Shown piece by piece: positions 5,949-61,385 of a stretch of 64,000 nucleotides of DNA. The first letter of the stretch is position 1. Each line of letters opens with the position of its first letter. The position numbers and the translations under genes are program-made. The notes below the pieces were generated by a model. The model ran no database searches. It saw only the letters and a list, made by a program, of their open reading frames with translations, and had not been told where the DNA came from. Origin of the DNA: Salipaludibacillus neizhouensis (GTDB taxonomy: Bacteria; Bacillota; Bacilli; Bacillales; Salisediminibacteriaceae); NCBI RefSeq assembly GCF_002886185.1, contig NZ_KZ614146.1, positions 1,596,930-1,660,929 of the forward strand, written 5' to 3'.

Positions 5949-6104
5949 GATAAGAATTCAAATAATCGCAGCTACCTTCACACCGCACGTATCAAGGGAA
6001 ACCCACCCTTCCTTTCGAGTAGCACCTACACGCACTACGTAGGTGCTACTCGGGGCGGTGGAAGCTAACACTGTATTTAACAAAAGACGCTTTGCGTTTT
6101 TCTT
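5949..6104 (+). repeat. Dispersed structured element, copy 1 (forward)
   Basis: First of four full copies (others at 20168-20312, 26728-26882, and 58618-58766 reversed). In order it has an outer left stem (GCTACCTTCACACCGC), a conserved linker ending CCTTTC, a 13-bp hairpin (GAGTAGCACCTAC / GTAGGTGCTACTC, 6017-6051), an outer right stem (GGGGCGGTGGAAGC), and a tail ending in ACGC-TTT-GCGT plus a T run. It lies downstream of, and in the same direction as, gltAB, after its terminator. It is not coding. It could be a small structured RNA, a 3' UTR element or a non-autonomous mobile repeat. Confidence 0.85.
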
Positions 6105-6108
6105 AGTA

Positions 6109-6216
6109 TTATTTTACTGCAAGTTTAGTATGTTTACTTTTACTTTTTTGCTCATGTTGATGAATAGCCCAATACAACTCTTCATCAGTATAGAGGGACA
6201 ATTTAATATTCTTCAT
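6109..6216 (-). CDS. Microprotein (35 aa), member A of a three-member family
   Basis: Small unrecognised gene read on the minus strand. It starts at the ATG ending at 6216, behind a strong AGGAGGG site about 7 bp upstream. The product is 35 residues, begins MKNIKLSLYTDEELYWAI, and ends in a Lys-rich tail. The N-terminal core (LSLYTDEE-YWAI) is shared with two genes at 47714-47800 and 47874-48029; the tails differ. There is no signal peptide or membrane segment. The upstream region shares a fixed-spacing promoter-like block with the gene at 47874-48029. The stop is 5 bp from the end of repeat copy 1. Function unknown. Confidence 0.72.
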   Translation of the reverse strand: MKNIKLSLYTDEELYWAIHQHEQKSKSKHTKLAVK

Positions 6217-6248
6217 ATGTTATCCCTCCTTTGTTCTTTGTAATTACA

Positions 6249-6288
6249 AGTATAGACCAAGTAATTTAAGGGATGTTGTTTTGCGTAA
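6249..6288 (-). promoter_or_regulatory. Promoter-like block upstream of microprotein A
   Basis: On the minus strand the order is TTACGCAA, 3 bases, AACATC, 17 bases, TATACT, then 12-13 bases to the ribosome binding site. The same order with identical spacings precedes the paralogue at 47874-48029 (see 48057-48096). TATACT fits a -10 box. The -35 position (AACATC/T) is not sigma-A-like, so TTACGCAA may be an activator or alternative sigma signal. Confidence 0.55.
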
Positions 6289-6452
6289 GATTTCATAACA
6301 GAGAAATTTGGATATGAGCAGGACGATAATCTGCATTTCTGGTATAAGCTTGGTTTATATCTTACGAAAAACTGCTTGATTTCCCTGAGTGATTCGCGAG
6401 TAATTGAACTAATTACAGCATAGCGGGGCTCGCTTGGATCATTCTTCAAACA

Positions 6453-6473
6453 AGAAGCAGAGAACCGTCCCTT
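6453..6473 (-). repeat. 21-bp repeat, right arm of inverted pair
   Basis: Exact reverse complement of 5806-5826. The pair bounds a 668-bp segment holding the gltAB terminator, structured-element copy 1 and microprotein A. Confidence 0.7.
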
Positions 6474-6676
6474 GTTATTACATACTTTTACAATTTCAAT
6501 CAATCTTACATCATAATTTGCCGATATCACTAGTATTTTGAAGATATTCAGAGATATTTTATGATTATTTTTGAGGATTTTCATCTTTTTGGTCTATTGA
6601 AGCCTAGTTACAGTTTTACGCTCCGGAACGATATGTTAAGATTAGCATCAAGTTCAATATAGAGAGGGGAATATCA
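6474..6676. other. Upstream region of the SurA-N-like lipoprotein gene
   Basis: About 200 bp without a supported gene. The only clear signal is the ribosome binding site AGAGAGGGG just before the ATG at 6677. A 123-codon open frame on the minus strand here overlaps microprotein A in another frame and has no convincing start signal or family features. Confidence 0.4.
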
Positions 6677-7519
6677 ATGAATAAAAAACACCTATTAAGT
6701 TTATCACTTGCAGGATTAGTTGCTGTGAGTGTTGCATGTAGTAACGATGAAGAGACAAATCAAGGTGGAAATGAAGGAAACGCAACACAAGAAGAAACAA
6801 CAAATAATGAAGCTACAGAATCGCAGGAGGAAGAGCCCGCTGAAAATAACGAAACAGCTGTAGAGGATGAGGAAGCCTCAGAACAAATGGAAATGCCTGA
6901 ACCTGACTTAGAAGGCGTTCCAGATATCGTGGCCGAAGTAAACGGAGAAGAAATACCTAAAGAAGAATTCGAAGTTACTTACGAAGGGCAATTTCAACAA
7001 GCCGCTATGCAATCACAAATGACAGGCGAAGAGGTTGACCAAGATCAATTAAAGCAACAGATTGTAGAGAGTATGATTGGTACGGAGCTTCTCATACAGG
7101 CTGCGGAAAACGGTGATTTTGAAGCTTCAGAAGAAGACATTCAGGAAACATTGAATCAAATAGCTGCACAAAACGGCATGGAATCAGGAGATGAATTTAT
7201 TGCAGCTATAGAAGAACAGGGTACTGATGAAGAAGAAGTCATGTCTCAGTTAGAAGTGCAAGTTAAAATTGATCAACTGATTGCGAGCGAGACAGGGGAA
7301 ATAAACCCGACGGATGAAGAGTTACAAGAATTCTATGATCAGATGATCGCACAACAAGGAGAAGTAGAAGGAGAGAATGGGGAAGAGGCAGAAGTCCCTT
7401 CTTTCGAAGAAGTAAAACCACAAGTTGAAGAACAAGTTAGAAGTCAAAAAGAAGCAGAAGCAGCACAATTACTTGTAGAAAAACTGCGTGAAGATGCAGA
7501 TGTCACAATTAACTTATAA
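6677..7519 (+). CDS. SurA-N-like lipoprotein, putative secretion chaperone
   Basis: Predicted lipoprotein of 280 residues. The signal peptide ends in a lipobox (LVAVSVAC; Cys near residue 21), followed by a ~55-residue linker rich in Glu, Asn and Thr. The rest (VAEVNGEEIPKEEFE onward, residues ~90-280) resembles the helical N-terminal domain of SurA/PrsA-type chaperones, with its characteristic 'I/LV-x-x-MI-x-x-xLL-x-x-A' pattern. No parvulin PPIase domain is present, unlike full PrsA (~290-300 residues with the domain inserted). The likely role is binding unfolded exported proteins outside the membrane; this is inferred from the family. The protein is very acidic, as in salt-adapted bacteria. 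ATG at 6677, good Shine-Dalgarno. It stands alone, with a terminator after it. Confidence 0.8.
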   Translation: MNKKHLLSLSLAGLVAVSVACSNDEETNQGGNEGNATQEETTNNEATESQEEEPAENNETAVEDEEASEQMEMPEPDLEGVPDIVAEVNGEEIPKEEFEVTYEGQFQQAAMQSQMTGEEVDQDQLKQQIVESMIGTELLIQAAENGDFEASEEDIQETLNQIAAQNGMESGDEFIAAIEEQGTDEEEVMSQLEVQVKIDQLIASETGEINPTDEELQEFYDQMIAQQGEVEGENGEEAEVPSFEEVKPQVEEQVRSQKEAEAAQLLVEKLREDADVTINL

Positions 7520-7582
7520 AAATATGTAAGACGACTTAATATTCATTAGGTTCTGTTTTTCTTAAATATAATAAAATAGTGA

Positions 7583-7618
7583 GGCAGCTAAATCAGATTG
7601 ATTATAGCTGTCTTTTTG
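7583..7618 (+). terminator. Terminator after SurA-N-like gene
   Basis: Stem GGCAGCTA / TAGCTGTC (one G-U pair) around a 16-18 base loop, followed by TTTTTGCTTT. It lies 60-100 bp after the stop at 7519. Confidence 0.75.
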
Positions 7619-7867
7619 CTTTGTAAATACCTGAGGGACAGACTACTCTTAAAATAATACATTCTTCTTAGTAGTAACTTTTATCTTAAATAAAGAAGTT
7701 CATTTACTACATACAGCTGATAAATGTTGAATTATTTTAGTCGACAACGCTTTAAAAACATTTATAATTGAATGAGAAGCTTCATTAATATTTGATTCAC
7801 AATTATTGCCAAATTTATGAAGCTCCAAAACATAGATTAGAACACCATAGGACGGAGAGAGAAGTTC
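7619..7867. other. Intergenic region upstream of the hydrolase gene
   Basis: AT-rich. A widely spaced inverted repeat (GAAGCTTCAT near 7777, ATGAAGCTCC near 7817) is visible. The ribosome binding site GGACGGAGAGAG precedes the GTG start at 7868. No other gene is supported. Confidence 0.4.
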
Positions 7868-8821
7868 GTGAAAAAGTTTATTAGTATCATAAGTAGTTTG
7901 ATAGTTTTAGTAATCATTGCACTCATGATAGGGGGAGATTATTTTTATCGTGAAGCAGTAAAACGGGGAACAGAGGTCGAATTGCACCGCGAGGAAGACG
8001 CAATCCCTGCAATGGTAAATGAGAAAAACGAAGATATGATTAACGAAGCAGCTACTTGGTATGAAGAACAGAATTTTGAAAAAAGAACAATAACTACCTA
8101 TGATGATCTTATATTAGAAGCGGATTTTCTAAAGAACGAAGAATCAACTGGTAAAGCCGTGATCCTTGCTCATGGTTTTAGAAGTCAACGAGCAGATATG
8201 AGTGATTTTGTTCAATTTTATCATGAGCAAGGTTTCGATATTTTGATCCCAGATTCCCGAGGTCATGGGGAGAGCGAAGGGGATTATATTGGTTTTGGTT
8301 GGCATGATCGCCTAGATTATCAGAAATGGATTAAAGAACTTATCGATGAAGAAAACAGTAGCGATATTTTCCTTCATGGTGTTTCCATGGGTGCTGGAAC
8401 CGTGTTAATGACAAGCGGAGAAGATCTTCCTAATGAAGTAAAAGGCGTTATCGCCGACAGTGGATATACATCAGCAGAAGATATTTTAACGTATCAACTG
8501 CAACAAATCTATCAATTGCCTGCGTTTCCAATCATCCAGATCACCAGTGGTTTAACAAACGTTCGAGCCGGCTTTAGTTTTGGTGAAGCATCTGCAGTAG
8601 CCCAAGCTGCAAAAAATACGAGACCACTTTTTATTATTCATGGGGAAGCTGACGAACTCGTTCCAACTGCAATGGCTGATGAAATATATGAAGCTGCTGG
8701 TGGGGATAAAACGTTATGGACTGTTCCGGGAGCAGGCCATGTTAAATCTTATACAGTGGAAACGGTAGAATACCAAGACCGTTTGATGAAATTTTTTGAA
8801 GAAAGTATGAAAAACAATTGA
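7868..8821 (+). CDS. Membrane-anchored alpha/beta hydrolase (YqkD-like)
   Basis: Serine hydrolase of 317 residues with one N-terminal transmembrane anchor (IISSLIVLVIIALMIGG, residues ~6-22), so the catalytic domain probably faces outside. The alpha/beta-hydrolase fold is shown by the oxyanion HGFRSQ, the nucleophile elbow HGVSMGAG (Ser near residue 173), an acid in HGEADELVP and the catalytic His in GAGHVKSY near the C-terminus. This layout matches Bacillus YqkD-type proteins annotated as alpha/beta hydrolases of unknown substrate. It starts with GTG at 7868 behind a GGAGAG site. Single-gene unit with its own terminator. Confidence 0.85.
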   Translation: MKKFISIISSLIVLVIIALMIGGDYFYREAVKRGTEVELHREEDAIPAMVNEKNEDMINEAATWYEEQNFEKRTITTYDDLILEADFLKNEESTGKAVILAHGFRSQRADMSDFVQFYHEQGFDILIPDSRGHGESEGDYIGFGWHDRLDYQKWIKELIDEENSSDIFLHGVSMGAGTVLMTSGEDLPNEVKGVIADSGYTSAEDILTYQLQQIYQLPAFPIIQITSGLTNVRAGFSFGEASAVAQAAKNTRPLFIIHGEADELVPTAMADEIYEAAGGDKTLWTVPGAGHVKSYTVETVEYQDRLMKFFEESMKNN

Positions 8822-8907
8822 TTTAGAGAGAGTTTTTCCTAAAAAAATTTTGTTGCATTAGTGCATGGGATATCTAAAAGTGAAATAGAGAAAAGATTAT
8901 GTGCTTC

Positions 8908-8933
8908 GAGCTGCTAACACAGCTCTTTTTTTT
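8908..8933 (+). terminator. Terminator after hydrolase gene
   Basis: GAGCTG / CAGCTC stem with loop CTAACA, followed directly by a run of eight T. Confidence 0.85.
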
Positions 8934-9129
8934 GAATCAAAGTCCAATTAACTGGAAAATGATGATAAAATATATTTAATCGATGTTGACCATAAAGACC
9001 TTAACAGCCCAGAATCCAATTTTTATTTATAGTTACAATACATGAACCAATTTCATAATACAATTTTTCAACTTTTTCAACGAACGTTTGAATAAATACT
9101 GATATCAATATTCGTGAAAAAACGAATGA

Positions 9130-9265
9130 TTGAAGTGCAAGACGGCGAATCCTGTGGGATCAGCGAAGTCTGAAAATCCATTCAGACGGAGATTTTCGGA
9201 GGAGGAATTAGTTGAAGACGAGCCCCACGGAAAGCGTCCGTCTGAAATGGAGATCATTTAGAACG
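9130..9265. repeat. Degenerate Bacillaceae intergenic repeat (GCGGACG-CTTTCC type)
   Basis: This stretch includes GAAGTCTGAAAATCCATTCAGACGG, then GGAGGAGGAATTAGTTGAAGACGAGCCCCACGGAAAGCGTCCGTCTGAA. Words of the CCACGGAAAGCGTCCG type recur at 24493-24560 and 35338-35470 in this window and are common as non-coding repeats in Bacillaceae. The copy is decayed and encodes nothing recognisable. It fills most of the 555-bp gap between the hydrolase and P-loop genes. Confidence 0.6.
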
Positions 9266-9376
9266 TTCGGAAATCAATATACAACGATGACTTATGAAAT
9301 TCATTCACATATGAATTTATTTAAATAATTCGGTTTTTAAACTTCACAGTTAATATCAATCGTTTAGGAGGCTTAT

Positions 9377-9934
9377 ATGAATTTTATTTTAATATTTGGA
9401 CCACAAGCAGTTGGTAAGATGACAGTTGGACAGGAAGTAGAAAAACTGACGGAATTAAAGCTTTTTCATAACCATATGACGATTGATATGCTTTATCCTT
9501 TATTTGGATTTGGTCCGGAGACATGGAGGTTATCAACATTATTTAGACAAGAGATATTTAAAGAAGTCGCTTCAAGCAACATGGCAGGATTGATTTTTAC
9601 ATTTGTATGGGCATTTGATGAGAAAGAAGACTGGGATTTTGTGAATAGTATTTGCGATATTTTTGAGTCCAAAGAAGGTAGTGTATATTTTGTCGAACTT
9701 GAGGCGGATATAGAAGAGAGACTCGTGCGTAATAAAAGTCACCATAGACTCGAGCATAAGCCTACCAAACGAGATATTGAGCAGTCTGAATATAATTTAA
9801 AAATTACAATGGAGAACCATAGACTAAACTCTATGGAAGGAGAAATTACACGAGAAAACTATATTAAAATTAACAATACACATTTAAGCCCTGAAGATGT
9901 TGCTTCTATTATTACAGATAGGTTTCAAATTTAG
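9377..9934 (+). CDS. P-loop ATPase/kinase-like protein
   Basis: Cytoplasmic protein of 185 residues with an N-terminal Walker A (FGPQAVGKMTVG, residues ~7-18) and an overall pattern like small nucleotide or chloramphenicol phosphotransferase-type kinases: P-loop, then HNHMTIDML, a mid-protein hydrophobic strand, and an Arg-rich lid-like segment (EERLVRNKSHHRLEHK). It would bind ATP; the substrate cannot be deduced. Similar stand-alone 'AAA family ATPase' genes are common in Bacillus. ATG at 9377 with AGGAGG 7-8 bp upstream. The next gene (9997) follows after 62 bp and may be cotranscribed. Confidence 0.75.
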   Translation: MNFILIFGPQAVGKMTVGQEVEKLTELKLFHNHMTIDMLYPLFGFGPETWRLSTLFRQEIFKEVASSNMAGLIFTFVWAFDEKEDWDFVNSICDIFESKEGSVYFVELEADIEERLVRNKSHHRLEHKPTKRDIEQSEYNLKITMENHRLNSMEGEITRENYIKINNTHLSPEDVASIITDRFQI

Positions 9935-9996
9935 TTGTCGTACTATGAAAATTCTGAGCATTTGAAGAAAACCAAAAACTATTGGAGGAAGAATGT

Positions 9997-10119
9997 ATGT
10001 GGATTTTATTAACTCTTATTATTATAGGAGTGGGCACAATTATTGGACAATTAAAAGAACAAACGAATCAAAATGAAAGAATAATAGAGCTTCTAAAAGA
10101 ATGTAATAAAAACAATTAA
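9997..10119 (+). CDS. Small single-pass membrane protein (40 aa)
   Basis: Short gene of 40 codons with a good TTGGAGGAA site upstream and ATG at 9997. The product starts MWILLTLIIIGVGTIIGQ, one transmembrane segment (residues ~2-18). A short polar, probably helical tail follows (QTNQNERIIELLKECNKNN). This 'one TM plus short coiled tail' form is common in Bacillus hypothetical proteins. Function unknown. It may share a transcript with the P-loop gene. Confidence 0.6.
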   Translation: MWILLTLIIIGVGTIIGQLKEQTNQNERIIELLKECNKNN

Positions 10120-11626: not shown

Positions 11627-11750
11627 TAAAGAATTTGTCTATGAAAACTAGAGAATATATATTGTTTAAAAGTGAATTTCATCTAAAAAGGGTAACTTTC
11701 TTTTCTTCTGGAGATCATAAGACAATCACGAATAGACAGGAGTGGGATAT

Positions 11751-11918: not shown

Positions 11919-11923
11919 GAAAT

Positions 11924-11970: not shown

Positions 11971-11981
11971 ATTGTATATTC

Positions 11982-13700: not shown

Positions 13701-13727
13701 TTTAAATGAACTCCTTTCAATCCCAAA

Positions 13728-18916: not shown

Positions 18917-20110
18917 ATGAAAAAATGGAAGGTATTAATCGCAGATGATGAATTCATAATACGTGATGGTATTCGTTCTTCCGTTGACTGGGAAAAATAT
19001 AATATGGAAGTCATAGGCGAAGCGGAAGATGGAGAGGAAGCTGTGGAATTAGCAATTACACATCAGATTGATATCTTATTGATTGATATAAATATGCCGA
19101 TTATGAATGGTTTTATTGCAATGAAGCAATTGAAAGAGCAACTTCCCAATTGTAAAATGCTAGTCATATCGGGTTACGATGAGTTCAGCTATGCACAAGA
19201 AGCTATTCGTTTGCATGTTGAAGACTATTTACTGAAGCCAGTAAATCCAGAAAAATTGCAAATTTTGCTAATGGAAATAAAGGAAAAGCTAGACATAGAA
19301 GTGAATAAGGAAGTTTACTTAAAACAAGCGGCCAGCCAAATCAAAAAAAATCAAGCTCAAATGAAGAGAAGGTTTTTTCAGGATTGGATTGAACGTAATC
19401 TATCATCTGATGAAATTAAAGAACAGTTACATTTTATCGATTTACCTGTCAGTTCACCAAAACAGTACATGGTAATCAGGTGGCCAGAGTATCATCAAAA
19501 CCAAACGTATATGCAGGAGAACGATCGGCAAATTTTCTTGTTCGCTATTGAAAATATTGTGGAAGAGAAATTAGCAGCTGAAATGTCTGCTGTTTTTCGT
19601 GACCAATCAAATCTATTTAATGTATGTTTATGGGAAACAGTGGATAATGACCAAATGAAAGAAATAGAAGAAGCAATTTTAAAATACCTTAAAATCAAAG
19701 TATATTGGCATATAGAGGACGTTGACGTTGACGACTTAACGAATTTATATAAAACCTATGAAATGTGTAAATTAAAAGTAGATAAACAAATAAGAGTTTC
19801 CCCAATCGTTAAAGAGGCACAACTCTATGTGCAACAGAATTATCAGGATTCTTCCCTTACGTTAGAAAGGGTTGCGGAACAATTGCATGTATCATCTGTA
19901 TACTTAAGCCGTATGATGAAACAGGAGTTAGCCATTTCTTACGTCGGCCTTTTAAAACAGATGCGCATAAATAAAGCTACTGATTTATTGAAAACAACGG
20001 ATATGTCCATTCGTGCCATCGCAGAGGAAGTTGGTTTTGACTCTCAGCATTATTTCAGTACAACTTTTAAAAAAATGGTAGGCGTATCACCAAATCAATT
20101 TAAGAAATGA
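18917..20110 (+). CDS. Response regulator, YesN/AraC type (AraT-like)
   Basis: Transcription regulator of 397 residues. An N-terminal receiver domain shows the acidic pair D10-D11, phosphoacceptor Asp57 (ILLIDINMP) and Lys in LLKPVNP. A central region of ~130 residues has no clear domain. The C-terminal ~100 residues form an AraC-type double helix-turn-helix (LTLERVAEQLHVSSVYLSRM and IRAIAEEVGFDSQHYFS). It is the last gene of the sensor operon, followed by a strong terminator. By position and family it should activate the chvE-gguA-gguB transporter downstream. Confidence 0.9.
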   Translation: MKKWKVLIADDEFIIRDGIRSSVDWEKYNMEVIGEAEDGEEAVELAITHQIDILLIDINMPIMNGFIAMKQLKEQLPNCKMLVISGYDEFSYAQEAIRLHVEDYLLKPVNPEKLQILLMEIKEKLDIEVNKEVYLKQAASQIKKNQAQMKRRFFQDWIERNLSSDEIKEQLHFIDLPVSSPKQYMVIRWPEYHQNQTYMQENDRQIFLFAIENIVEEKLAAEMSAVFRDQSNLFNVCLWETVDNDQMKEIEEAILKYLKIKVYWHIEDVDVDDLTNLYKTYEMCKLKVDKQIRVSPIVKEAQLYVQQNYQDSSLTLERVAEQLHVSSVYLSRMMKQELAISYVGLLKQMRINKATDLLKTTDMSIRAIAEEVGFDSQHYFSTTFKKMVGVSPNQFKK

Positions 20111-20119
20111 ACGCTAAGC

Positions 20120-20153
20120 GAAAGCACTTTCCATATATAATGGAAGTGCTTTC
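20120..20153 (+). terminator. Terminator of the sensor operon
   Basis: GAAAGCACTTTCCAT / ATGGAAGTGCTTTC, a 14-bp stem with one bulged T and a short AT loop, 10 bp after the regulator stop, followed by TCTCTCG. Confidence 0.85.
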
Positions 20154-20167
20154 TCTCGAGAGATAAG

Positions 20168-20312
20168 TATTTATAAAATTGGCAGCTACCTTCACACCGC
20201 AAGTATCAAGGGAAACCAACCTCCTTTCGAGTAGCACCTAAACGAAAACCGTAGGTGCTACTCGGGGTGGTGGAAGCGGACGCTGTATTTAATAAAAGAC
20301 GGCTATGCTGTT
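20168..20312 (+). repeat. Dispersed structured element, copy 2 (forward)
   Basis: Same order as copy 1: outer left stem GCTACCTTCACACCGC, linker with CCTCCTTTCGAG, 12-bp hairpin (GAGTAGCACCTA / TAGGTGCTACTC), right stem GGGGTGGTGGAAGC, tail AAAAGACGGCTATGCTGTTTTTT. The 3' mini-hairpin is ACGGC/GCTGT here versus ACGC/GCGT in copy 1, so base pairing is kept although the sequence changed. It lies directly after the sensor-operon terminator, in the same direction. Confidence 0.88.
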
Positions 20313-20418
20313 TTTTATTTAAAAAACAAATATCTATAAAAAAATAACCTAAATTCATAGAGTTTGTTCTCCCTTTGTTACATTTAGATTAAATTTTTAT
20401 AAAAACAGTTTAAAATAA

Positions 20419-25821: not shown

Positions 25822-26667
25822 ATGATTCGAATATCGGGAGAGCCCTTTCAACATAATCAGAATTGGCCTAGTGGCAGCCCAGAAGGTATAATCGTTCAAT
25901 CGATGCAAGAAGCTTCTATGGTTTATTCCTATGAAACCAAAGATCAGCTATCTTTCGAACTTCAGTTACGAAAAAACATCATGAACAGTGCAAATCAGAT
26001 GAACAAAAGCAATGCACAATTTGCTACCTTTGAAAATTCTCGTTGTAACCCTCAATATTGGCAATTAACAGACACAGGGGGATTTCGCCTCCAGCAAGGA
26101 GTGCGTCCTTCCGTCGCCATTCGAGATATTTTCCAAAACGGTTCGCAATACGCTTTTGAATGTGCTGGAGCCATGGTAATTATTTATTACCATGCGGTTT
26201 TAAATCAAATTGGAGAGAGCCTATTTAATCAATTTTTTCAGGATATCTTTATATACAGCTGGCATTTTGACGCTGATCTAGGAATACGTCCGACCTATAT
26301 AAATTCGTTTTTACTTGGCGATGTTGTCTACTTTAAGAATCCGGAAGTGGCTCCTAACACTTCCTATTGGCGAGGAGAAAATGCTGTCGTTATGGGGGAA
26401 GATCTCTATTTTGGTCATGGATTAGGACTAATGACAGCCGATCAGATGATTCAATCATTGAACCGGTATCGTATTCCAGGCGCTAATGCATCCGCTTATT
26501 TAACAAACGTAGTAGCTAGACCATCTTTCAAAAACCTGTATCGTATTTCGATGCCATCTCGAGAATCTTCTCTTCGCAAATATCAGTATGTAGTCATTGA
26601 GCATAATGAAAGCTCGATTCCATTCGACCGGTACCGATTTTTCCTGAACGGGATTTATAATCGGTAA
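25822..26667 (+). CDS. tgl: Protein-glutamine gamma-glutamyltransferase (spore coat)
   Basis: Sporulation transglutaminase of 281 residues. It cross-links spore coat proteins through epsilon-(gamma-glutamyl)lysine bonds. The catalytic Cys114 lies in YAFECAGAMVI, preceded by Glu113. Glu186 (YWRGENAVVMG) and His199 (YFGHG) match the Cys/Glu/His active site of Bacillus subtilis Tgl. It is slightly longer than the B. subtilis protein (245 residues) at the N-terminus. ATG at 25822 follows GAAAGGGG. Its presence is the clearest sign that the organism forms endospores. Structured-element copy 3 lies just downstream. Expected to be expressed late in the mother cell; no sporulation promoter was firmly identified. 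Confidence 0.95.
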   Translation: MIRISGEPFQHNQNWPSGSPEGIIVQSMQEASMVYSYETKDQLSFELQLRKNIMNSANQMNKSNAQFATFENSRCNPQYWQLTDTGGFRLQQGVRPSVAIRDIFQNGSQYAFECAGAMVIIYYHAVLNQIGESLFNQFFQDIFIYSWHFDADLGIRPTYINSFLLGDVVYFKNPEVAPNTSYWRGENAVVMGEDLYFGHGLGLMTADQMIQSLNRYRIPGANASAYLTNVVARPSFKNLYRISMPSRESSLRKYQYVVIEHNESSIPFDRYRFFLNGIYNR

Positions 26668-26727
26668 ATTTTAATTCTTGAAAAATGTCGGGATTGGAAC
26701 AGTTAATTTCCATCCCTTTCTTGAAAG

Positions 26728-26882
26728 TTAAGAATTTATAAGTTGACAGCTATCTTTACGCCACAAGCATCAAGGGAAGCCCATCTCCTTTCGAGTAGCA
26801 CCTACAATCACTACTTAGGTGCTACTCGGGGGTGCCGAAAGCTCACGCAGTAATTAACAAAAGTCTCTTTGCGTTTTTCTTA
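26728..26882 (+). repeat. Dispersed structured element, copy 3 (forward)
   Basis: Left stem GCTATCTTTACGCCAC, linker CATCTCCTTTCGAG, 12-bp hairpin (GAGTAGCACCTA / TAGGTGCTACTC), right stem GGGTGCCGAAAGC, tail ACAAAAGTCTCTTTGCGTTTTTC. The left stem differs from copies 1 and 2 (TTTACGCCAC versus TTCACACCGC) and the right stem changes with it. It follows tgl in the same direction. Confidence 0.85.
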
Positions 26883-26997
26883 AACAGTTGTATTGATTCA
26901 TGAACTAAGGCAAAATAAAGAGTATCAAAATAGTTTTTTGATAAAATTACGAGTCCGTCACCAGGTCTTACCGTGTAGTTGAAAAGGAGATGTTTTT

Positions 26998-30168: not shown

Positions 30169-30187
30169 TATCTAAATATTCAAATAC

Positions 30188-30463
30188 ATTGAAGAGGAAT
30201 AGTAGGATTTTTGGAGCGTACAGAGAGCTGTTGGTTGGTGTAAAACAGTGGCAATCAAAATTCGAACTCGCCTTGAAGTAGCTCACTGAACTGGAAAAAG
30301 TAGGTGGAGACGGTGCCTGACCGTTACATTAGGAGGATATAAGGGTTTGAACCTTGTATCTGTTCGAGTGCATACCTTTATTAGGTATGAAATCAGAGTG
30401 GTACCACGTGGGATATTAATGTCTTTCGTCTCTATAGTTATAGAGATGAAAGACTTTTTTGTT
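30188..30463 (+). promoter_or_regulatory. T-box leader, leucine-specific
   Basis: tRNA-sensing riboswitch controlling leuA. Visible parts: AGAGAGCTG-TTGG-TTGGTG near 30222, a specifier region TTCGAACTCGCC with CTC (Leu) at 30267-30269, the T-box AGAGTGGTACCACGTGGG at 30395-30412, and the terminator hairpin at 30421-30463. Uncharged tRNA-Leu would stabilise the antiterminator and allow leuA expression. The Leu assignment rests on specifier position plus the downstream gene; stem I was not folded in full. Confidence 0.9.
30421..30463 (+). terminator. T-box regulated terminator
   Basis: GTCTTTCGTCTCTATA / TATAGAGATGAAAGAC stem with loop GTTA, followed by TTTTTTG. It competes with the antiterminator formed by the T-box sequence. 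Confidence 0.9.
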
Positions 30464-30503: not shown

Positions 30504-32183
30504 ATGAAAAAAATTGAGAAGTATTCCAGAAATTATTTTATGCCGCCAGTAAAAAGTATGAAGTGGAGTGAAAAAGAATATATCACGGAAGCTCCGGCAT
30601 GGTGTAGTGTCGATCTCCGAGATGGTAATCAAGCTTTGGTGGTACCGATGAATCTAGAGGAAAAGTTAGAGTATTTTCAATTATTAGTAGACATTGGCTT
30701 TAAGGAAATAGAAGTTGGATTTCCGGCTGCATCAGATACAGAATATGCATTTTTACGAACACTCATTGAAAAAAACTTGATCCCGGATGATGTGACGATC
30801 CAAGTTCTTACACAAGCCAGGGAACATATTATTCGTAAAACGTTTGAATCACTGCAAGGTGTCTCAAAAGCGATCGTCCATCTGTATAACTCGACTTCTG
30901 TTGCGCAGCGGGAACAGGTTTTCAAAAAGTCGAAAGAAGAAATCATTAGCATTGCAATAACAGGAGCAAAGCTATTAAAAAAATATGCATTGGAAACAGA
31001 AGGTAACTTTACCTTTCAATATTCACCGGAAAGCTTCACTGGAACCGAGATTGAGTTTGCGTTGGAAATCTGTAATAACGTGCTTGATGAATGGCAGCCT
31101 ACTGCAACTGAAAAGGTTATTATCAATTTACCGGCGACAGTGTCCATGTCTATGCCACATGTCTACGCAAGTCAAATTGAGTACATGAGTGATCATCTGA
31201 AATACCGTGATAATGTGATTGTTTCTGTTCATCCTCATAATGACAGAGGAACGGGAGTGGCAGATGCAGAATTAGGAATGCTTGCCGGTGCAGACCGGGT
31301 CGAAGGTACTTTATTTGGAAATGGAGAAAGAACTGGTAACGTGGATGTTGTAACACTTGCACTTAATATGTTTTCACATGGTGTAGATCCTCAACTAAAT
31401 CTTGAGAACATTCCAGAAATAATTGCTGTTTTTGAACGGATGACGAAAATGAAAGTAAGTGAAAGACACCCTTACGGCGGGGAACTCGTTTTCACTGCGT
31501 TCTCCGGCTCACATCAGGATGCGATATCAAAAGGTATAAAATGGCGAGAGGGTCACGAAGATAAATATTGGACGGTTCCTTACTTGTTAATCGACCCTAA
31601 AGATATTGGTAGAGAGTACGAGGGGGATATTATCCGTATTAATAGCCAATCAGGTAAAGGCGGCATCGCTTATGTACTTGGTCAAAAATATGGTTTGGAT
31701 TTACCTACAGAAATGCGGGAAAGTTTCGGTTACAGCGTGAAAAATATCTCGGATCGTTTACACAAAGAACTTGTTCCTAAAGACATATACGACATTTTCG
31801 TGAAAGAATACGTAAACATAGAAAAACCTTTTGCGTTTATTAATTACCAGTTCAAAAGTTATGATGACTACCATACTACTGTTAAAATTAAAGTTAATAA
31901 TGACGTTCAAGAGTTTGAAGGGATTGGAAACGGTCGTCTGGATGCCATAAGTAATATCATTCAAAACAAATTAGATATAAAATATACAAATCTCGTTTAT
32001 AAGGAACATGCATTAGAAATAGGTTCTGGTTCACAGGCTGTTTCCTATGTAGGTATCACATCCGAAGATGGCAGTGTTTATTGGGGCTGCGGCATTGATA
32101 TGGATATCATGGCTTCTTCTATCAAAGCATTGTTCAGTGCCGTCAACAAATTAATCAGCGTGGAAGCTACTCCAGTGAAATAA
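30504..32183 (+). CDS. leuA: 2-isopropylmalate synthase, long (LeuA type 2) form
   Basis: First enzyme of leucine biosynthesis: condenses 2-oxoisovalerate with acetyl-CoA. The 559-residue protein belongs to the fungal/actinobacterial-type clade rather than the usual Bacillus leuABCD form. It starts KYSRNYFMPP and has the catalytic barrel motif CSVDLRDGNQALV, then EVGFPAASDTE, HPHNDRGTG with the metal-binding His pair, and GNGERTGNVD. A C-terminal regulatory domain (residues ~430-555) probably carries leucine feedback. ATG at 30504 after GAAAGGG. Controlled by the leucine T-box upstream. yisK follows at 37 bp. No other leu gene is adjacent. Confidence 0.95.
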   Translation: MKKIEKYSRNYFMPPVKSMKWSEKEYITEAPAWCSVDLRDGNQALVVPMNLEEKLEYFQLLVDIGFKEIEVGFPAASDTEYAFLRTLIEKNLIPDDVTIQVLTQAREHIIRKTFESLQGVSKAIVHLYNSTSVAQREQVFKKSKEEIISIAITGAKLLKKYALETEGNFTFQYSPESFTGTEIEFALEICNNVLDEWQPTATEKVIINLPATVSMSMPHVYASQIEYMSDHLKYRDNVIVSVHPHNDRGTGVADAELGMLAGADRVEGTLFGNGERTGNVDVVTLALNMFSHGVDPQLNLENIPEIIAVFERMTKMKVSERHPYGGELVFTAFSGSHQDAISKGIKWREGHEDKYWTVPYLLIDPKDIGREYEGDIIRINSQSGKGGIAYVLGQKYGLDLPTEMRESFGYSVKNISDRLHKELVPKDIYDIFVKEYVNIEKPFAFINYQFKSYDDYHTTVKIKVNNDVQEFEGIGNGRLDAISNIIQNKLDIKYTNLVYKEHALEIGSGSQAVSYVGITSEDGSVYWGCGIDMDIMASSIKALFSAVNKLISVEATPVK

Positions 32184-56380: not shown

Positions 56381-56387
56381 TGTTGAA

Positions 56388-56432
56388 AAGAGGATGTCTC
56401 AAAAGGTAGAAGAACCTTAGAGACATCCTCTT
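56388..56432. terminator. Bidirectional terminator between trpB and MFS gene
   Basis: AAGAGGATGTCTC / GAGACATCCTCTTT stem with an inner AAGGT...ACCTT pair. It serves the convergent genes. Confidence 0.88.
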
Positions 56433-56455
56433 TATTTTACTTTCACCGCCTCTTA

Positions 56456-57745
56456 TTAAAATGAGATACTGTCATTAATCAGAGCTTTATTTTTTCTAAC
56501 AATATTACTTCCTTTTTTCAAGAAATAAAAAGCAATCACAAACGTCAAAGCTGCTCCATAAAACAAAGAAGGAGGGGAGAACACATCCATTATTAAACCA
56601 AGTAATCCAGGAGCTATAATAGAAGAGGCCATGGAGAACAAATAATATAATCCTGTGAAAAAACCGATCTTACTCATTCCACCTAGATCAGCAACTAAAG
56701 GATAGGCTTGCACATTAATGAACGCCCAAGCTATTCCTCCACTAAACAGAACGAGTTGCAAAACCAGCACTTGGTTTAATTCCGGAAATACAGTATTTAA
56801 TAACGGAAGAGAAGGAATGGAAATGAATGTGAGTGGTAAAATAACTAAACCTATGAGCATAATCGGCAATTTACCTAGCTTACTTCCCAAAAGACCAGCA
56901 GGAACAGCAAAAATAACAAAAGCTAAACTGAAAAATCCAAGTGTAAAACCTGCCTTACCGGCTTCCATCTTCAAGAACTCAACAGCGTATACTGTGAATT
57001 GTGCTTCTAAACCTGCATAACCAATAAAATACAAAAAGATCGCAAAAAGGATAAAGAAATGTCCTCTGAACTCAGGCTTTAATATTTTGCCAAATCCATG
57101 AAAAAAAGACTTAGACGCTTGTATTTCCTCTATTTCGTCTTCGGATGAACCAACATAAGGCGGACGTCTATCTACAGTAAAATAAAGAAATATAAATGAC
57201 AGTAATAGAAGAATCCCAGCCACAATAAAAGGGTAAGTCCTCTCTATTCCGTATAAGGTGGATAAACCAAATAATGCAATTAGCGCGCCAATACCACCCA
57301 TGAGATTAATAATCCCATTCGCTGTTGACCGTTTTTCAGAAGGGGTGTGATCAGGCATTAATGCGATAACTGGTGCACGATAAATCGTCATTGCAAGCAA
57401 AAACATGATATCTATAGCCAGCAGCAGCCATAGTGTATTCAGAGCTCCATATGGAATCAGAATAAAGAAAAGAGCGGCAGCCGGCATACCTACGACAATA
57501 AAAGGCAGTCGCTTACCAAGCTTAGTATCAACTTTATCCGACCAAGCACCAATGAAGGGTATGAGGATGACCGCAAGTAAATTGTCTAAACCCATTATTC
57601 CCCCTCGAATAGCTCTACTTTCAATGTAGTCACCAAGAAGAAGCGGCATATAAGCATTATAAAACGTCCATCCAAGCGTTAATGCAAAGAATCCGCTGCC
57701 AATAGCGAATATTTTCCCGTACGAAAATGGCTTATCCTGTGTCAT
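56456..57745 (-). CDS. MFS transporter (SLC45/GPH-like)
   Basis: Twelve-helix major facilitator transporter of 429 residues. The first half has the GPH/SLC45-like signature (DNLLAVILIPFIGAWSDKVD, then LGKRLPFIVVGMP). A charged central loop (RRPPYVGSSEDEIEEIQASK) separates the two halves. Family members carry sugars or glycosides with cations. It is the second gene of an operon with the GDPD homologue 15 bp upstream, with GGAGG in the gap, so the substrate may be a glycerophosphodiester or glycerol sugar; this is inference. Confidence 0.85.
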   Translation of the reverse strand: MTQDKPFSYGKIFAIGSGFFALTLGWTFYNAYMPLLLGDYIESRAIRGGIMGLDNLLAVILIPFIGAWSDKVDTKLGKRLPFIVVGMPAAALFFILIPYGALNTLWLLLAIDIMFLLAMTIYRAPVIALMPDHTPSEKRSTANGIINLMGGIGALIALFGLSTLYGIERTYPFIVAGILLLLSFIFLYFTVDRRPPYVGSSEDEIEEIQASKSFFHGFGKILKPEFRGHFFILFAIFLYFIGYAGLEAQFTVYAVEFLKMEAGKAGFTLGFFSLAFVIFAVPAGLLGSKLGKLPIMLIGLVILPLTFISIPSLPLLNTVFPELNQVLVLQLVLFSGGIAWAFINVQAYPLVADLGGMSKIGFFTGLYYLFSMASSIIAPGLLGLIMDVFSPPSLFYGAALTFVIAFYFLKKGSNIVRKNKALINDSISF

Positions 57746-57760
57746 TAAAACGCCTCCAGT

Positions 57761-58504
57761 TTATCCCTTTTGCATTGCCTTACGAATGTGTACTGCTTTT
57801 TCTGGCCAATCAGTAATAATCGCTGCACAGTGTCGTTTTATCAAAGCTTGAATATGGTCGTCTTCATTCACAGTAAATGGTCGAACTGCCATATTTGCTT
57901 GATGAGCACCAGCCAGTAAATCAGAACCTGCCACTGGTAAAAAACAGTGTAATCCACTAGCCCCAATACTATGCGCATAATTCCATGGCTCGTACAGACC
58001 TTCCATGAATAAAATAGCTGTCTCCATTTCAGGATCTAATCGATGGCACTCAACAAGGCTATAATGATTAAATGATGAAATAATCACACTATCTTTTAAC
58101 TGATACTTGGTGATCAAATCTATCACTATTTTTTCCATGCCAGGGTAATGAATAACGCCACTTTTAAGTTTTACGTTTAATTTAAGTTGTGTATGGACAG
58201 CCCAACTAAATAATTCTTCAAGTGATGGGATGATGACTCCTTGAAAAGAAGGCGCAAACCAGCTTCCAGCATCGAATGATTTCAACTCCTCGTAGGTGAA
58301 GTCTTTAACCCATCCATGAGCATTTGTCGTTCGATTAACCGTCTCGTCATGAATCACCACAGGGATGTCATCTTTCGTTAGCTGCACATCAAATTTTATG
58401 CCTTCCGCACCAGCTTTTAAGCCAGCCTCAAAAGATACCATTGTATTCTCTGGATGAGTACCCGCAGAACCCCTGTGAGCAAAAATTGCAGTATTATGTA
58501 TCAT
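57761..58504 (-). CDS. Glycerophosphodiester phosphodiesterase homologue with altered metal site
   Basis: GDPD-family protein of 247 residues, cytoplasmic (no signal peptide). Conserved parts are FAHRGSAGTHPENT (His10, Arg11), VVIHDETVNRTT (His52, Asp53) and KAVHIRKAMQ at the end. However, the metal-binding Glu-x-Asp motif reads Lys37-Phe-Asp39 (GIKFDVQLTKD), and the second Glu is Lys112 (LNVKLKSG). Lys114 is kept. Both changes need one G-to-A step. Activity may be lost or altered. I use the ATG ending at 58504, ~10 bp after GAGGTG; a TTG at 58513 would touch the ribosome site. First gene of the operon with the MFS transporter. Confidence 0.85.
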   Translation of the reverse strand: MIHNTAIFAHRGSAGTHPENTMVSFEAGLKAGAEGIKFDVQLTKDDIPVVIHDETVNRTTNAHGWVKDFTYEELKSFDAGSWFAPSFQGVIIPSLEELFSWAVHTQLKLNVKLKSGVIHYPGMEKIVIDLITKYQLKDSVIISSFNHYSLVECHRLDPEMETAILFMEGLYEPWNYAHSIGASGLHCFLPVAGSDLLAGAHQANMAVRPFTVNEDDHIQALIKRHCAAIITDWPEKAVHIRKAMQKG

Positions 58505-58617
58505 TTCAATCAATCACCTCAACTTGGTTAGTCTATTATCTCTCTATACATATACCATCCTCAAGGTATCAATTCCTTTAGTCTGATAAATATTTACAAA
58601 AAGTTTACATAGGATAA

Positions 58618-58766
58618 GAAAAACGCGTAGCGTCTTTTGTTAAATACAGCGTGATCTTTAGCCACCCCGAGTAGCACCTACGTAATACGTGTAGGTGCTA
58701 CTCGAAAGGAGGTGGGTTTCCCTTGACACTTGTGGCGTAAAGATAGCTGTCAACTTATACTTTCTC
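58618..58766 (-). repeat. Dispersed structured element, copy 4 (reverse)
   Basis: Read on the minus strand: left stem GCTATCTTTACGCCAC, linker CACCTCCTTTCGAG, 13-bp hairpin (GAGTAGCACCTAC / GTAGGTGCTACTC), right stem GGGTGGCTAAAGATC, tail AAAAGACGCTACGCGTTTTTC. Left ATCTTTA-GCCAC and right GTGGC-TAAAGAT pair with each other, although both differ from copies 1 and 2. It lies 3' of guaC on the same strand. Confidence 0.88.
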
Positions 58767-58834
58767 AAAAAAAAGAACGAGGATTGAAAAATCCCCGCTC
58801 ATTTCATAAACGTATTCGATTTGTCTAGCAAAGC

Positions 58835-59818
58835 CTAGTAGACTTTATCGCCATTAAAGATAGAATTCTTCACAATGACGTAATCAACAGTGCGAATTGC
58901 TTCTAACTTATTTCCTCCAGCATAAGAGATAGAGGATTGGAGATCTTGTTCCATTTCTTTCAGCGTTTCTTCCAGTGAACCTTTATGTTCGACATACATT
59001 TTTTTACCTTCAACATTTTTCTTTTCACCTTTTTGAAATTCTGAAGCTGAACCAAAATATTCTTTAAAAAGCTTTCCGTCTTTCTCAAACGTTTCACCAG
59101 GTGATTCTTCGTGACCGGCAAATAAGGAACCAATCATCACCATTGTCGCTCCAAATCTGAATGATTTAGCGATATCTCCATTCGTACGGATGCCTCCGTC
59201 AGCAATAATTGGTTTACTAGCTGCTTTTGCACACCAGCGAAGAGCAGCTAATTGCCATCCACCAGTTCCAAATCCTGTTTTAATTTTCGTAATACAAACC
59301 TTACCTGGACCAATACCGACTTTTGTTGCATCGGCACCAGCATGCTCTAATTCACGTACAGCTTCGGGTGTACCAACATTTCCAGCAATAACAAAACTTG
59401 TTGGAAGGTGTTTTTTAATATGTTGTATCATATCAATCACTTCATTTGAATGACCATGAGCGATATCAATAGTAATGTAATCAGGTATAAGACTTTCGGA
59501 GGCTAATTCTTCGATAAATTTATATTCTTCCGCTTTGACTCCTACACTAATAGAGGTAAATAGACCTCGTGACTCCATATCTTTAATAAATAATTGTCTT
59601 TTTTCCGGCTCAAAACGGTGCATTACATAAAAATAGCCTTTCTCTGCTAAAAAAGTTGCAATTTTTTCATCAATAATTGTCTGCATATTCGCAGGTACAA
59701 CAGGCAATTTAAAAGAACGTCCACCCAATTCAACCGTTGTATCACACTCGGATCGACTTTTCACTACACACTTTGCCGGAATTAACTGTATATCTTCATA
59801 ATCAAACGCATTATCCAT
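58835..59818 (-). CDS. guaC: GMP reductase
   Basis: Converts GMP to IMP with NADPH, feeding guanine nucleotides back to the purine pool. The 327-residue protein is a type 2 GuaC of the IMPDH/GMPR barrel family. Visible are [30 protein letters not shown], the catalytic Cys loop [23 protein letters not shown] and [12 protein letters not shown]. No CBS domains are present, which distinguishes it from IMPDH. ATG ending at 59818 has AGGAG 8 bp upstream; the in-frame GTG at 59827 overlaps that site. Promoter and PurR-type boxes lie upstream. Confidence 0.95.
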
Positions 59819-59831
59819 AATATCCACTCCT

Positions 59832-59875
59832 AAAAACGAATAATAAATATTTTTTTTGTATTAATGTTCGCCCAA
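59832..59875 (-). promoter_or_regulatory. Predicted PurR operator of guaC
   Basis: Two convergent PurBox-like sites: AAAAACGAATAAT (59832-59844, plus strand; 11 of 13 to AWWWCCGAACWWT) and TTGGGCGAACATT (59863-59875, minus strand; 9 of 13 with a full CGAACATT core), 18 bp apart. They lie between promoter and start codon. Confidence 0.55.
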
Positions 59876-59880
59876 TAGAT

Positions 59881-59909
59881 AATTTACATCAATCAATAGA
59901 GAATGTCAA
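59881..59909 (-). promoter_or_regulatory. Promoter of guaC
   Basis: Minus strand: TTGACA, 17 bases, TAAATT, about 63 bp before the guaC start. Confidence 0.75.
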
Positions 59910-60108
59910 AGTATTCGTGATGATTCTATTTATTATTTATATCGGTATGTAAATAACGGTTACAAGAATTCACTAGAAAGATTACACTTACACTATTGAA
60001 AACATAGCGATATAATGAAGATAAGTGTTATGCTAATTATTGTTAACCATTGAATCAAATAATATAATAACTATCGTAACCAGTGAATAGTTAAAAGGAA
60101 GGTAATAT

Positions 60109-61278
60109 ATGACAGAGCAAAATATAACTAGATTAAACATAGGTGATAAGGAACTGATCCTTATAGGCACTGCTCACGTTTCCAAGCAAAGTGCCGAACA
60201 AGTAAAAGAAGTTATTGAAGCTGAAAAACCAGATACTGTATGTGTGGAATTGGATGAACAAAGATATACGGCGGTTATGCAGGATAGCCAGTGGAAGGAT
60301 ATGGACATATTTAAAGTTGTGAAAGAGAAGAAAGCTACCTTACTTCTTATGAATCTACTGATATCTTCTTTCCAAAAAAGAATGGCAAAGCAATTTGATA
60401 TAAAGCCCGGTCAAGAGATGATTCAAGGGATTGAATCAGCAAATAATTTAGGGGCTGAAGTAGTACTTGCGGATAGAAATATTCAAATTACTTTTTCTCG
60501 TATTTGGAATGGAATAGGTATATGGGGAAAAGCGAAACTAATTACAACTATTGTAGCCAGTATTTTCAGCAAGGAAGAACTTTCCGAAAAAGATTTAGAA
60601 CGAATGAAGTCGGAAGATATGCTGAATTCCGCGCTTGAGGAATTCACGAATTCTTTTCCAAAATTAAAGGTTCCTTTAATAGACGAAAGGGATCAATATT
60701 TATCTCAGAAGATCAAAGAGGCTCCAGGGAAAAAGATCGTTGCTGTCTTAGGTGCGGCACATATCCCAGGTATTAAAGAAGAAATAAAAAAGGACCACGA
60801 TTTAGAAGCATTATGCGAAAAGCCAGCTAAATCAAAAATTCCAAAGATTCTTGCTTGGGCAATTCCGTTAGCTATAGTTGGTATTATCGCGTACACATTA
60901 ATTGCCAATCCTGCTGATGGGATCCAACAAATTATTAGCTGGATACTTTGGAACGGTTCTTTTTCTGCAATAGGTGCTTTGATTGCCTTTGGTCATCCGG
61001 CAGCAGTTCTCACAGCTTTCCTCGTTGCGCCTATAAGTTCTTTGAGTCCGCTTATAGCAGCAGGATGGTTTGCTGGAATTACACAAACATATTTTAGGCG
61101 TCCAAACGTGAGTGATTTTGAAAGCTTATCAGAAGATGTCTATAATTTTAAAGGCTTCCGGGATAATAAAGTAACACGTATTTTACTCGTAGTAGTTTTG
61201 AGTAATATTGGCAGTACGATCGGAACCTTTATTGGTGGTGCGGATGTCATCCGTTTGTTCCTGCAAAACTTCACGTAA
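60109..61278 (+). CDS. TraB/PrgY family membrane protein
   Basis: Protein of 389 residues in the TraB/Tiki superfamily. The N-terminal soluble domain carries the family GTAHVSK motif (residues ~17-23), an acidic CVELDEQRY, and the second GAAHIPG near residue 220. These are the conserved Gly-x-x-His motifs of a putative metalloprotease. About four transmembrane segments follow (residues ~245-385). The name comes from enterococcal pheromone shutdown proteins, but chromosomal homologues have no known substrate. ATG at 60109 after GGAAGG. Transcribed away from guaC. Confidence 0.88.
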   Translation: MTEQNITRLNIGDKELILIGTAHVSKQSAEQVKEVIEAEKPDTVCVELDEQRYTAVMQDSQWKDMDIFKVVKEKKATLLLMNLLISSFQKRMAKQFDIKPGQEMIQGIESANNLGAEVVLADRNIQITFSRIWNGIGIWGKAKLITTIVASIFSKEELSEKDLERMKSEDMLNSALEEFTNSFPKLKVPLIDERDQYLSQKIKEAPGKKIVAVLGAAHIPGIKEEIKKDHDLEALCEKPAKSKIPKILAWAIPLAIVGIIAYTLIANPADGIQQIISWILWNGSFSAIGALIAFGHPAAVLTAFLVAPISSLSPLIAAGWFAGITQTYFRRPNVSDFESLSEDVYNFKGFRDNKVTRILLVVVLSNIGSTIGTFIGGADVIRLFLQNFT

Positions 61279-61332
61279 AATAATAGAAAAACTCGTATAA
61301 TGTGAGCTTTTACCATAACATTTAAGTGTCAA

Positions 61333-61385
61333 GGTTGTTTTTCTCTTGACACTTGTGGTGCAAAGAGAGCTGTTAACGTATACAT
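61333..61385 (-). repeat. Dispersed structured element, partial copy 5 (reverse)
   Basis: CTCTTGACACTTGTGGTGCAAAGAGAGCTGTTAACGTATAC aligns with CCCTTGACACTTGTGGCGTAAAGATAGCTGTCAACTTATAC of copy 4. Only the left-stem half is present; the palindromic hairpin and tail are missing. Confidence 0.7.

What the first reader, a model, noticed from the sequence alone, without database searches (positions are those of the whole stretch)
5949..61385. Dispersed structured element, four copies plus a fragment, with compensating stem changes
Copies at 5949-6104, 20168-20312, 26728-26882 (plus) and 58618-58766 (minus), and a half copy at 61333-61385. All share an inner 12-13 bp hairpin with variable loop, an outer stem flanking it, and a 3' tail ending in a mini-hairpin plus T run. 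The outer stem changes on both sides together (TTCACACCGC with GCGGTGGAA in copy 1; TTTA-GCCAC with GTGGC-TAAA in copy 4), as does the tail hairpin (ACGC/GCGT versus ACGGC/GCTGT). This suggests selection for structure. Every full copy lies just 3' of a gene and in the same direction. That pattern fits a structured RNA or 3' UTR element better than random insertion, although a non-autonomous mobile repeat is not excluded.
Basis: seen in the sequence. Interest (0 to 1): 0.8.

Follow-up and report, generated by a model that had tools for sequence, protein, structure and literature searches.

The report
Mobile repeat lodged behind gene terminators
This looks like a 130-160-letter mobile DNA repeat, present about two hundred times in this bacterium and in a few scattered relatives, that sits just behind the transcription stop signals of genes and carries a stop signal of its own.

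Summary
The window has four long-form copies; the "half copy" is a decayed full-length short-form copy (61280-61394, minus). I estimate about 200 full copies genome-wide (15 in an even 400 kb sample). The fold is supported: 17 of 31 pairs change on both sides, with 24 paired changes on a tree against 0-3 for slid pairings; that alignment was fitted to the structure. 'Conserved 3'-UTR RNA' is not the best reading. The copies look like a non-autonomous mobile repeat: at least 94 matches each in this genome and in G025, none in 7 congeners, tandem copies, and no copy in 800 kb of a congener that holds 16 candidate syntenic sites. The main new finding is placement: a T-run upstream of 86 of 95 copies, with a stable hairpin before it in 38 of 95 (random positions 18 of 1500), and similarly in a second genus. 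The element ends in its own terminator. The long form carries a palindrome whose two arms, in swapped order, form the array beside a RAYT-like transposase gene. The mobilising enzyme is unknown. New variant of a known kind (SPRITE, bcr1).

The parts
5947..6106 (+). Copy 1, long form (subfamily A stem)
5896..5939 (+). Native terminator-like hairpin directly upstream of copy 1; followed by T-rich sequence (TTGTCTTATG region), not a clean T-run
   Evidence: -27.8 kcal/mol, z -9.4
6019..6049 (+). Inner REP-like palindrome GTAGCACCTAC-9 nt-GTAGGTGCTAC of copy 1; its arms, in swapped order, form the RAYT-linked array
20160..20320 (+). Copy 2, long form (subfamily A stem)
20120..20153 (+). Native terminator-like hairpin upstream of copy 2; followed by TTTCTCTC, not a clean T-run
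   Evidence: -19.8 kcal/mol, z -4.1
26725..26883 (+). Copy 3, long form (subfamily B stem)
26690..26716 (+). Native hairpin followed by TTTCTT upstream of copy 3
   Evidence: -10.9 kcal/mol, z -1.8 (weak)
58614..58771 (-). Copy 4, long form (subfamily B stem)
58775..58800 (-). Native hairpin followed by a run of eight T upstream of copy 4
   Evidence: -14.9 kcal/mol, z -5.9
58671..58701 (-). Inner REP-like palindrome of copy 4
61280..61394 (-).
61400..61438 (-). Native terminator hairpin with T-run upstream of copy 5
   Evidence: -20.8 kcal/mol, z -7.7
4309..5793 (+). Gene upstream of copy 1 (pyridine-nucleotide oxidoreductase with Fer4_20 domain; likeness to glutamate synthase small subunit is recalled)
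18917..20110 (+). Gene upstream of copy 2 (response regulator with AraC-type HTH)
25822..26667 (+). Gene upstream of copy 3 (TGL, protein-glutamine gamma-glutamyltransferase)
58835..59827 (-). Gene upstream of copy 4 (IMPDH/GMP reductase family)

Best explanation
A non-autonomous, MITE-like mobile repeat of ~130 nt (short form) or ~155 nt (long form). It lodges, in one orientation, in or just after the T-tract of a pre-existing intrinsic terminator. One strand folds into an outer stem (P0/P1) holding an exchangeable inner hairpin (P2), followed by a compact hairpin and T-run (TTTTTCTTA) with an A-rich foot, so that it reads as an intrinsic terminator from either side. Placed there, the element leaves the upstream gene's terminator in front of it and offers a converging gene a new terminator, in some cases with the element's terminal TTA serving as that gene's TAA stop. 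Insertion would then be close to neutral for both neighbours, which could explain ~200 copies. Inferred: mobilisation in trans by a transposase that reads folded single-stranded DNA, most likely of the HUH Y1/RAYT type for the long form, whose inner palindrome shares its arms with a RAYT-linked array. Shown: copy number, fold and covariation, placement behind terminators, patchy spread, and no copy in the congener stretches with the candidate syntenic sites. Not shown: transcription, termination, current mobility, the enzyme.
For: Copy number: 15 full copies (8 short, 7 long) in 20 evenly spaced 20 kb stretches, extrapolating to ~207 (95% 116-341) per 5.51 Mb (14 full by the stricter cut); 95 exact inner palindromes genome-wide. 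Spread: R1 finds 96 (the cap) in G000, 94 in G025, 2 in G008, 2 in G010, 1 in G032 and none in the other 30 of 35 family genomes. R2 finds 5 of 397 order genomes, in four families. Fold; G-U 76 against A-C 41 cells. Placement: T-run (5 of 6) within 30 nt upstream in 86/95 G000 and 31/37 G025 copies, against 348/1500 random positions; adjacent hairpin of -8 kcal/mol or better in 38/95 and 17/37, against 18/1500; native gene ends with a T-run 91/316. All 5 window copies follow a hairpin (copy 3 weak; copies 1 and 2 without a clean T-run). Gene context of the long-form-rich set: convergent 33/76 against 60/314 intergenic gaps (p 2e-5); divergent 1/76 against 55/314 (p 4e-5). Congener G005: 16 candidate syntenic sites and no R2 match better than E 0.12 in the 800 kb fetched. 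At the copy at G000:C1:452591-452746 the terminator hairpin is shared with G005 and the element lies right behind it in G000. REP link. Converging ORF's stop exactly at the terminal TTA in 22 of 53 copies, against 12 of 64 control T-run-TTA sites (p 0.008).
Against: No clean target-site duplication: TTAnn is repeated exactly in 7 of 48 scored copies (1.6 expected), overall p 0.047 at five bases but 0.87 and 0.24 at six and seven; 23 of 71 copies could not be scored. Convergent enrichment is not seen in the separate set of 34 short forms of G000 (7/34, p 0.8) and is weaker in G025 (13/34, p 0.014). Avoidance of divergent gaps is not seen in G025 (4/34, p 0.5). No autonomous partner was found: none of 30 Y1-transposase loci holds an R2 match at E <= 1, and an HMM gave one weak match (E 0.03, L110). 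The RAYT link covers only the long form, the arm order differs between array and element, and Y1 transposases are common also in genomes without the element. In 57 of 95 G000 copies no upstream hairpin of -8 kcal/mol or better was found.
Confidence: 0.75

Rival explanations
1. Functional structured RNA or 3'-UTR regulatory element kept by selection at each gene.
For: Covariation; position 3' of a same-direction gene in 62 of 76 copies, 28 of 34 and 30 of 34 in two further sets; G-U favoured over A-C, as expected for RNA of this strand.
Against: No copy in 800 kb of a congener that holds 16 candidate syntenic sites; no match in 7 congeners; copies directly behind other copies' terminators; placement tracks terminators; the neighbouring genes tested in the window belong to unrelated families.
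Confidence: 0.12
2. RNA-mediated insertion by a group II intron-type reverse transcriptase: group IIC introns also insert behind terminators (recalled), so the repeat could be a retro-mobilised structured RNA with its own terminator.
For: Same kind of target; many reverse-transcriptase matches in G000 (9), G010 (11), G008 (11), G084 (9), against 0-4 in the seven congeners.
Against: G025, with 94 matches, has no RVT_1 match; no Rfam group II intron match at the elements scanned (window; one copy with lax threshold); no intron-like ends seen.
Confidence: 0.08
3. Variant of the best explanation: site-specific recombination at a short TTA core. A circular element form (TTTTTC-TTA-nn-AGATAAG) recombines with T-run-TTA targets, like the TTTAT-linked mechanism proposed for bcr elements. 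This differs from the best explanation only in the route of mobility, so the odds overlap.
For: Left flanks run T-tract then TTA in 32 of 48 scored copies, and the right end is TTTTTCTTA; the converging stop coincides with the terminal TTA in 22 of 53; PMC6542083 passages on TTTAT.
Against: No recombinase identified or searched for; the left TTA is missing in 16 of 48 scored copies.
Confidence: 0.25

Closest known systems
[quoted passage not shown]
   Same: Short dispersed repeat with some MITE features, a terminator-like hairpin and U-rich tract, over-represented between convergent genes and close to CDS 3' ends, TSD not established (PMC3049150, passages).
   Different: 30 copies in the genome described; a single 18 bp duplex; the passages seen mention no outer stem with exchangeable inner hairpin and no insertion behind native terminators. 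Sequence not compared.
bcr1-bcr3 repeats of the Bacillus cereus group
   Same: Similar size; 11-130 copies of bcr1 per strain; MITE-like, structured, often in UTRs; TTTAT-linked recombination-like mobility (PMC6542083 and PMC3446304, passages).
   Different: bcr1 is described as restricted to the B. cereus group. It is reported on plasmids too, yet blastn of both our forms against 72,556 plasmid records found nothing. The bcr consensus sequences were not held, so a direct test is missing.
EFAR repeats of Enterococcus faecalis
   Same: Recalled: ~170 bp, modular, near gene 3' ends, proposed bidirectional terminators. Named as a bacterial MITE in a passage of PMC3733652.
   Different: The original paper was not among the results; sequence not compared.
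GTAG-tagged REPs and RAYT transposases
   Same: The long form's inner palindrome is made of the same 11-nt arms, GTAGGTGCTAC and GTAGCACCTAC, as a six-unit array next to a Y1_Tnp gene.
   Different: The arms stand in the opposite order in array and element. The whole element is not a REP, and short forms lack the palindrome. In the passages seen of PMC3733652, GTAG repeats are listed for Proteobacteria, Cyanobacteria, Chloroflexi and PVC, not Firmicutes.

Membership tests
MITE / non-autonomous mobile repeat | Short, non-coding, many similar dispersed copies | tested here: met
MITE / non-autonomous mobile repeat | Terminal inverted repeats | tested here: inconclusive
   only TAAGAA/TTCTTA at the ends
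MITE / non-autonomous mobile repeat | Target-site duplication | tested here: inconclusive
   exact TTAnn in 7 of 48, 1.6 expected; no excess at six or seven bases
MITE / non-autonomous mobile repeat | Autonomous partner with matching ends | tested here: inconclusive
   none in the 30 Y1-transposase loci fetched; other transposase classes not searched
bcr1 (B. cereus repeat) | Sequence of the bcr1 consensus | not testable with these tools
   paper not held; indirect: no plasmid match
bcr1 (B. cereus repeat) | TTTAT motif repeats at the element | tested here: inconclusive
   TTTAT at the left end of many copies; no repeat of it shown on the right
SPRITE | Terminator-like fold close to CDS 3' ends | tested here: met
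SPRITE | Enriched between convergent genes | tested here: inconclusive
   33/76 and G025 13/34 against 60/314, but short forms of G000 7/34
SPRITE | Sequence homology to SPRITE | not tested
   SPRITE sequence not fetched
GTAG REP / RAYT | Palindrome shared with a RAYT-flanking array | tested here: met
   long form's inner hairpin only, arms in swapped order
GTAG REP / RAYT | Whole element is a 20-40 bp palindrome | tested here: not met
Group II intron derivative | Rfam group II intron match | tested here: not met
   window at gathering score; one copy with E up to 10
Any Rfam 15 family | Match at gathering score | tested here: not met
   (window); best sub-threshold match of one copy STnc540, 25.9 bits against a cut-off of 38, E 0.0009

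The most novel reading that the evidence does not exclude
A widespread Bacillales family of 'terminator-homing' elements: small folded elements that recognise an intrinsic terminator (hairpin plus T-run plus TTA) as an integration site, rebuild a bidirectional terminator and often a stop codon on entry, and swap inner hairpins, including capture of a RAYT-type palindrome, while keeping the same architecture across at least four bacterial families.
Probability: 0.4. Interest if true: 0.72.

Novelty: new variant of a known kind. Interest (0 to 1): 0.55.

Why it matters
If right, it shows how a mobile repeat can reach hundreds of copies almost without cost: by entering behind transcription terminators and bringing one of its own. 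It is a case where covariation, the usual sign of a functional RNA, would belong to a mobile element, a warning for RNA-motif discovery. The RAYT-type palindrome inside the long form offers a testable enzyme-substrate pair.

Tried and rejected
Searches that led nowhere: genome contigs exact 25-mer, 0; viral contigs, same 25-mer, 0; phages, short form only, 0; plasmids, both forms, 0; Rfam, none at the elements above threshold. Naming the organism through a window protein in genome contigs found no relative, so organisms are given by handle only. Orientation and replication: in the bins with clear polarity 54 of 64 copies lie on the leading strand, about as genes do, so an IS200-type lagging-strand bias could not be separated from gene direction. 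Element as part of a Y1 transposon: no R2 match in 30 Y1 loci. Element-overlapping reading frames in other genomes: opposing ORFs end at the element's terminal TTA in several copies, while same-strand ORFs running into the element (L207, 76 aa; L134, 100 aa) share no conserved extension. Papers: for PMC3446304, PMC3733652, PMC2267715, PMC6542083, PMC10969869 and PMC3049150 I saw passages found by term, not whole texts; others only in search listings. Searches that could have shown a terminator-targeting repeat in Bacillus listed none that I could recognise from titles and abstract starts.

Full report
Observation. All four full copies are present at the stated places and fold as described (copies 1 and 4 folded singly). 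The next window match has E 0.02. The half copy is a short-form element with a decayed terminator; its 3' end abuts the stop codon of the converging ORF ending at 61278.

Scale and forms. Single-copy BLAST queries of the own genome each stop at 40 scored candidates. In 20 evenly spaced 20 kb stretches chosen without regard to copies there are 15 full copies, 8 short and 7 long, plus 4 partial (a stricter cut gives 14). That is about 207 per genome (95% 116-341). The short form (~133 nt) has the inner hairpin TATCAAGGG..CCCTTGATA. In the long form (~155 nt) its 3' arm is replaced by a GTAGCACCTAC..GTAGGTGCTAC palindrome. Two stem types (A, B), two inner parts and two terminator types occur in all eight combinations among 117 distinct copies; 19 of the 117 had at least one part that my rough patterns could not type. 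This suggests shuffling between copies.

Structure. On 83 matches (82 distinct; mostly short forms of G000 and G025) aligned to model R1, 96.2% of pair cells are standard pairs, 17 of 31 pairs have changes on both sides and 134 cells do, against a mean of 49 in shuffles and 5-13 when partners are slid. The shuffles do not keep relatedness. On a FastTree tree I counted 24 double changes that keep pairing, 0-3 for slid partners, and a mean of 2.4 (maximum 8 in 100) for random re-pairing. These alignments were fitted to the structure and lean towards it. In a 25-match alignment including diverged copies of G008, G010 and G032, 18 of 31 pairs change on both sides. Outside G-U-majority pairs, G-U cells exceed A-C cells 76 to 41 (p 0.0016), favouring the strand described.

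Where it sits. A T-run of 5 T in 6 lies within 30 nt upstream of 86 of 95 own-genome copies with an intact 5' end and 31 of 37 copies of G025 (another genus), against 348 of 1500 random positions. A hairpin of -8 kcal/mol or better directly before it is found in 38/95, 17/37 and 18/1500 respectively. Native gene ends with a T-run have such a hairpin in 91 of 316. In the window all five copies follow a hairpin; copy 3's is weak (z -1.8), and copies 1 and 2 have a T-rich stretch rather than a clean T-run. Some left flanks are the terminator of another copy, i.e. tandem arrangement.

Gene context. With my own ORF caller, 76 of 80 full copies in a set gathered mostly by long-form queries lay outside predicted genes: 33 convergent, 29 with both genes in the copy's direction, 13 with both opposite, 1 divergent. 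The intergenic baseline, which includes gaps that hold elements, is 60 convergent, 199 co-directional, 55 divergent. In a separate set of 34 short forms of G000 the counts are 7, 21, 5 and 1; in G025 13, 17, 0 and 4 of 34, with 3 more at locus edges. So convergent excess is clear for the first set (p 2e-5), moderate in G025 (p 0.014) and absent in the short forms (p 0.8). Shortage of divergent gaps holds in both G000 sets (p 4e-5 and 0.026) but not in G025 (p 0.5). What holds in all three sets is a same-direction gene upstream: 62/76, 28/34, 30/34.

Ends. Left flanks run T-tract, TTA in 32 of 48 scored copies, two variable bases, AGATAAG; right ends are TTTTTCTTA. An exact five-base TTAnn repeat is seen in 7 of 48 (1.6 expected; p 0.047 overall), with no excess at six or seven bases; 23 of 71 copies could not be scored. 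Where an opposing ORF of 100 aa or more ends within -45 to +40 of the element end, its stop is exactly the terminal TTA in 22 of 53 (G000 16 of 43, G025 1 of 5, G084 3 of 3, G010 2 of 2), against 12 of 64 at other T-run-TTA sites of G000 (p 0.008). The other two element-supplied frames account for 5 of the 53.

Mobility. BLAST with a long-form copy over 60 relatives hits G000, G025, G008 and, by the inner palindrome alone, G007. R2 over 397 order genomes (stricter filters, 8 scored per genome) finds G000 (8), G010 (8), G084 (7), G075 (2) and G371 (1). Most of the copies I folded from these genomes keep an outer stem, inner hairpin and a terminator ending in or near TTTTCTTA, with different sequences; G075 and G032 fit less well. 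I fetched 800 kb of the ~4.6 Mb congener G005. Of 121 full-ish own-genome hits (some are one copy seen in two loci), 21 had both flanks matching there in order, which collapse to 16 distinct candidate sites, some with more than 1 kb of other sequence between the flanks. The best R2 match in the 800 kb has E 0.12. At G000:C1:452591-452746 the hairpin after the upstream gene (cttctcgtc..) is shared with G005, the element stands directly behind it in G000, and the sequence after the element resembles G005. At most other sites the intergenic sequence is too diverged for base-level reading.

Enzyme. G000 has a 202-aa Y1_Tnp gene (RAYT-like by its array; the label is recalled) between an ATP synthase epsilon gene and a gene that looks like ndhC (recalled from its sequence). 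It is followed by six repeat units (spacing 91, the last 122), five with the full palindrome GTAGGTGCTAC..GTAGCACCTAC. The long form's inner palindrome has the same two arms in the opposite order. With a short loop that order occurs 95 times in G000, once each in G002 and G007, and in none of the 57 other genomes searched. It cannot explain the short form, and Y1 genes occur in genomes with and without elements. G025 has no reverse-transcriptase match.

Judgement. The element works like SPRITE (PMC3049150, passages) and resembles bcr1 in size, abundance and AT-rich mobility motif (PMC6542083, passages). Homology to either was not tested directly. What appears new, within the searches named, is the placement behind native terminators, the self-supplied bidirectional terminator (read from sequence and fold), the RAYT-type palindrome inside the long form, and the spread of the architecture over at least four families. 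Transcription, termination and present mobility are inferred.

Noticed in passing
L114:609-1173 (G000:C2, about 736754-737318): Six-unit tandem array of GTAG palindromes downstream of a RAYT-like Y1 transposase gene with an open frame, between ATP-synthase epsilon and an ndhC-like gene.
   Followed up: partly
L093:12252-12311: Fragment of the element's 3' half preceded by sequence (ggttactcgtcg.agaaaacat) that also occurs in the RAYT-linked array (L114 near 1079-1100), suggesting recombination between the two repeat families.
   Followed up: no
L134 (G008) and L130 (G032): The 3' terminator hairpin is replaced by much longer stems (..TTTCAATCAA..) while a TTTCTTA-like end is kept.
   Followed up: partly
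G000, G010, G008, G084: These element-bearing genomes have 9-11 reverse-transcriptase matches while the seven congeners of G000 have 0-4; G025 has none.
   Followed up: no
window 30180-30436: T-box leader upstream of the ORF at 30504 (129.5 bits); ordinary.
   Followed up: no
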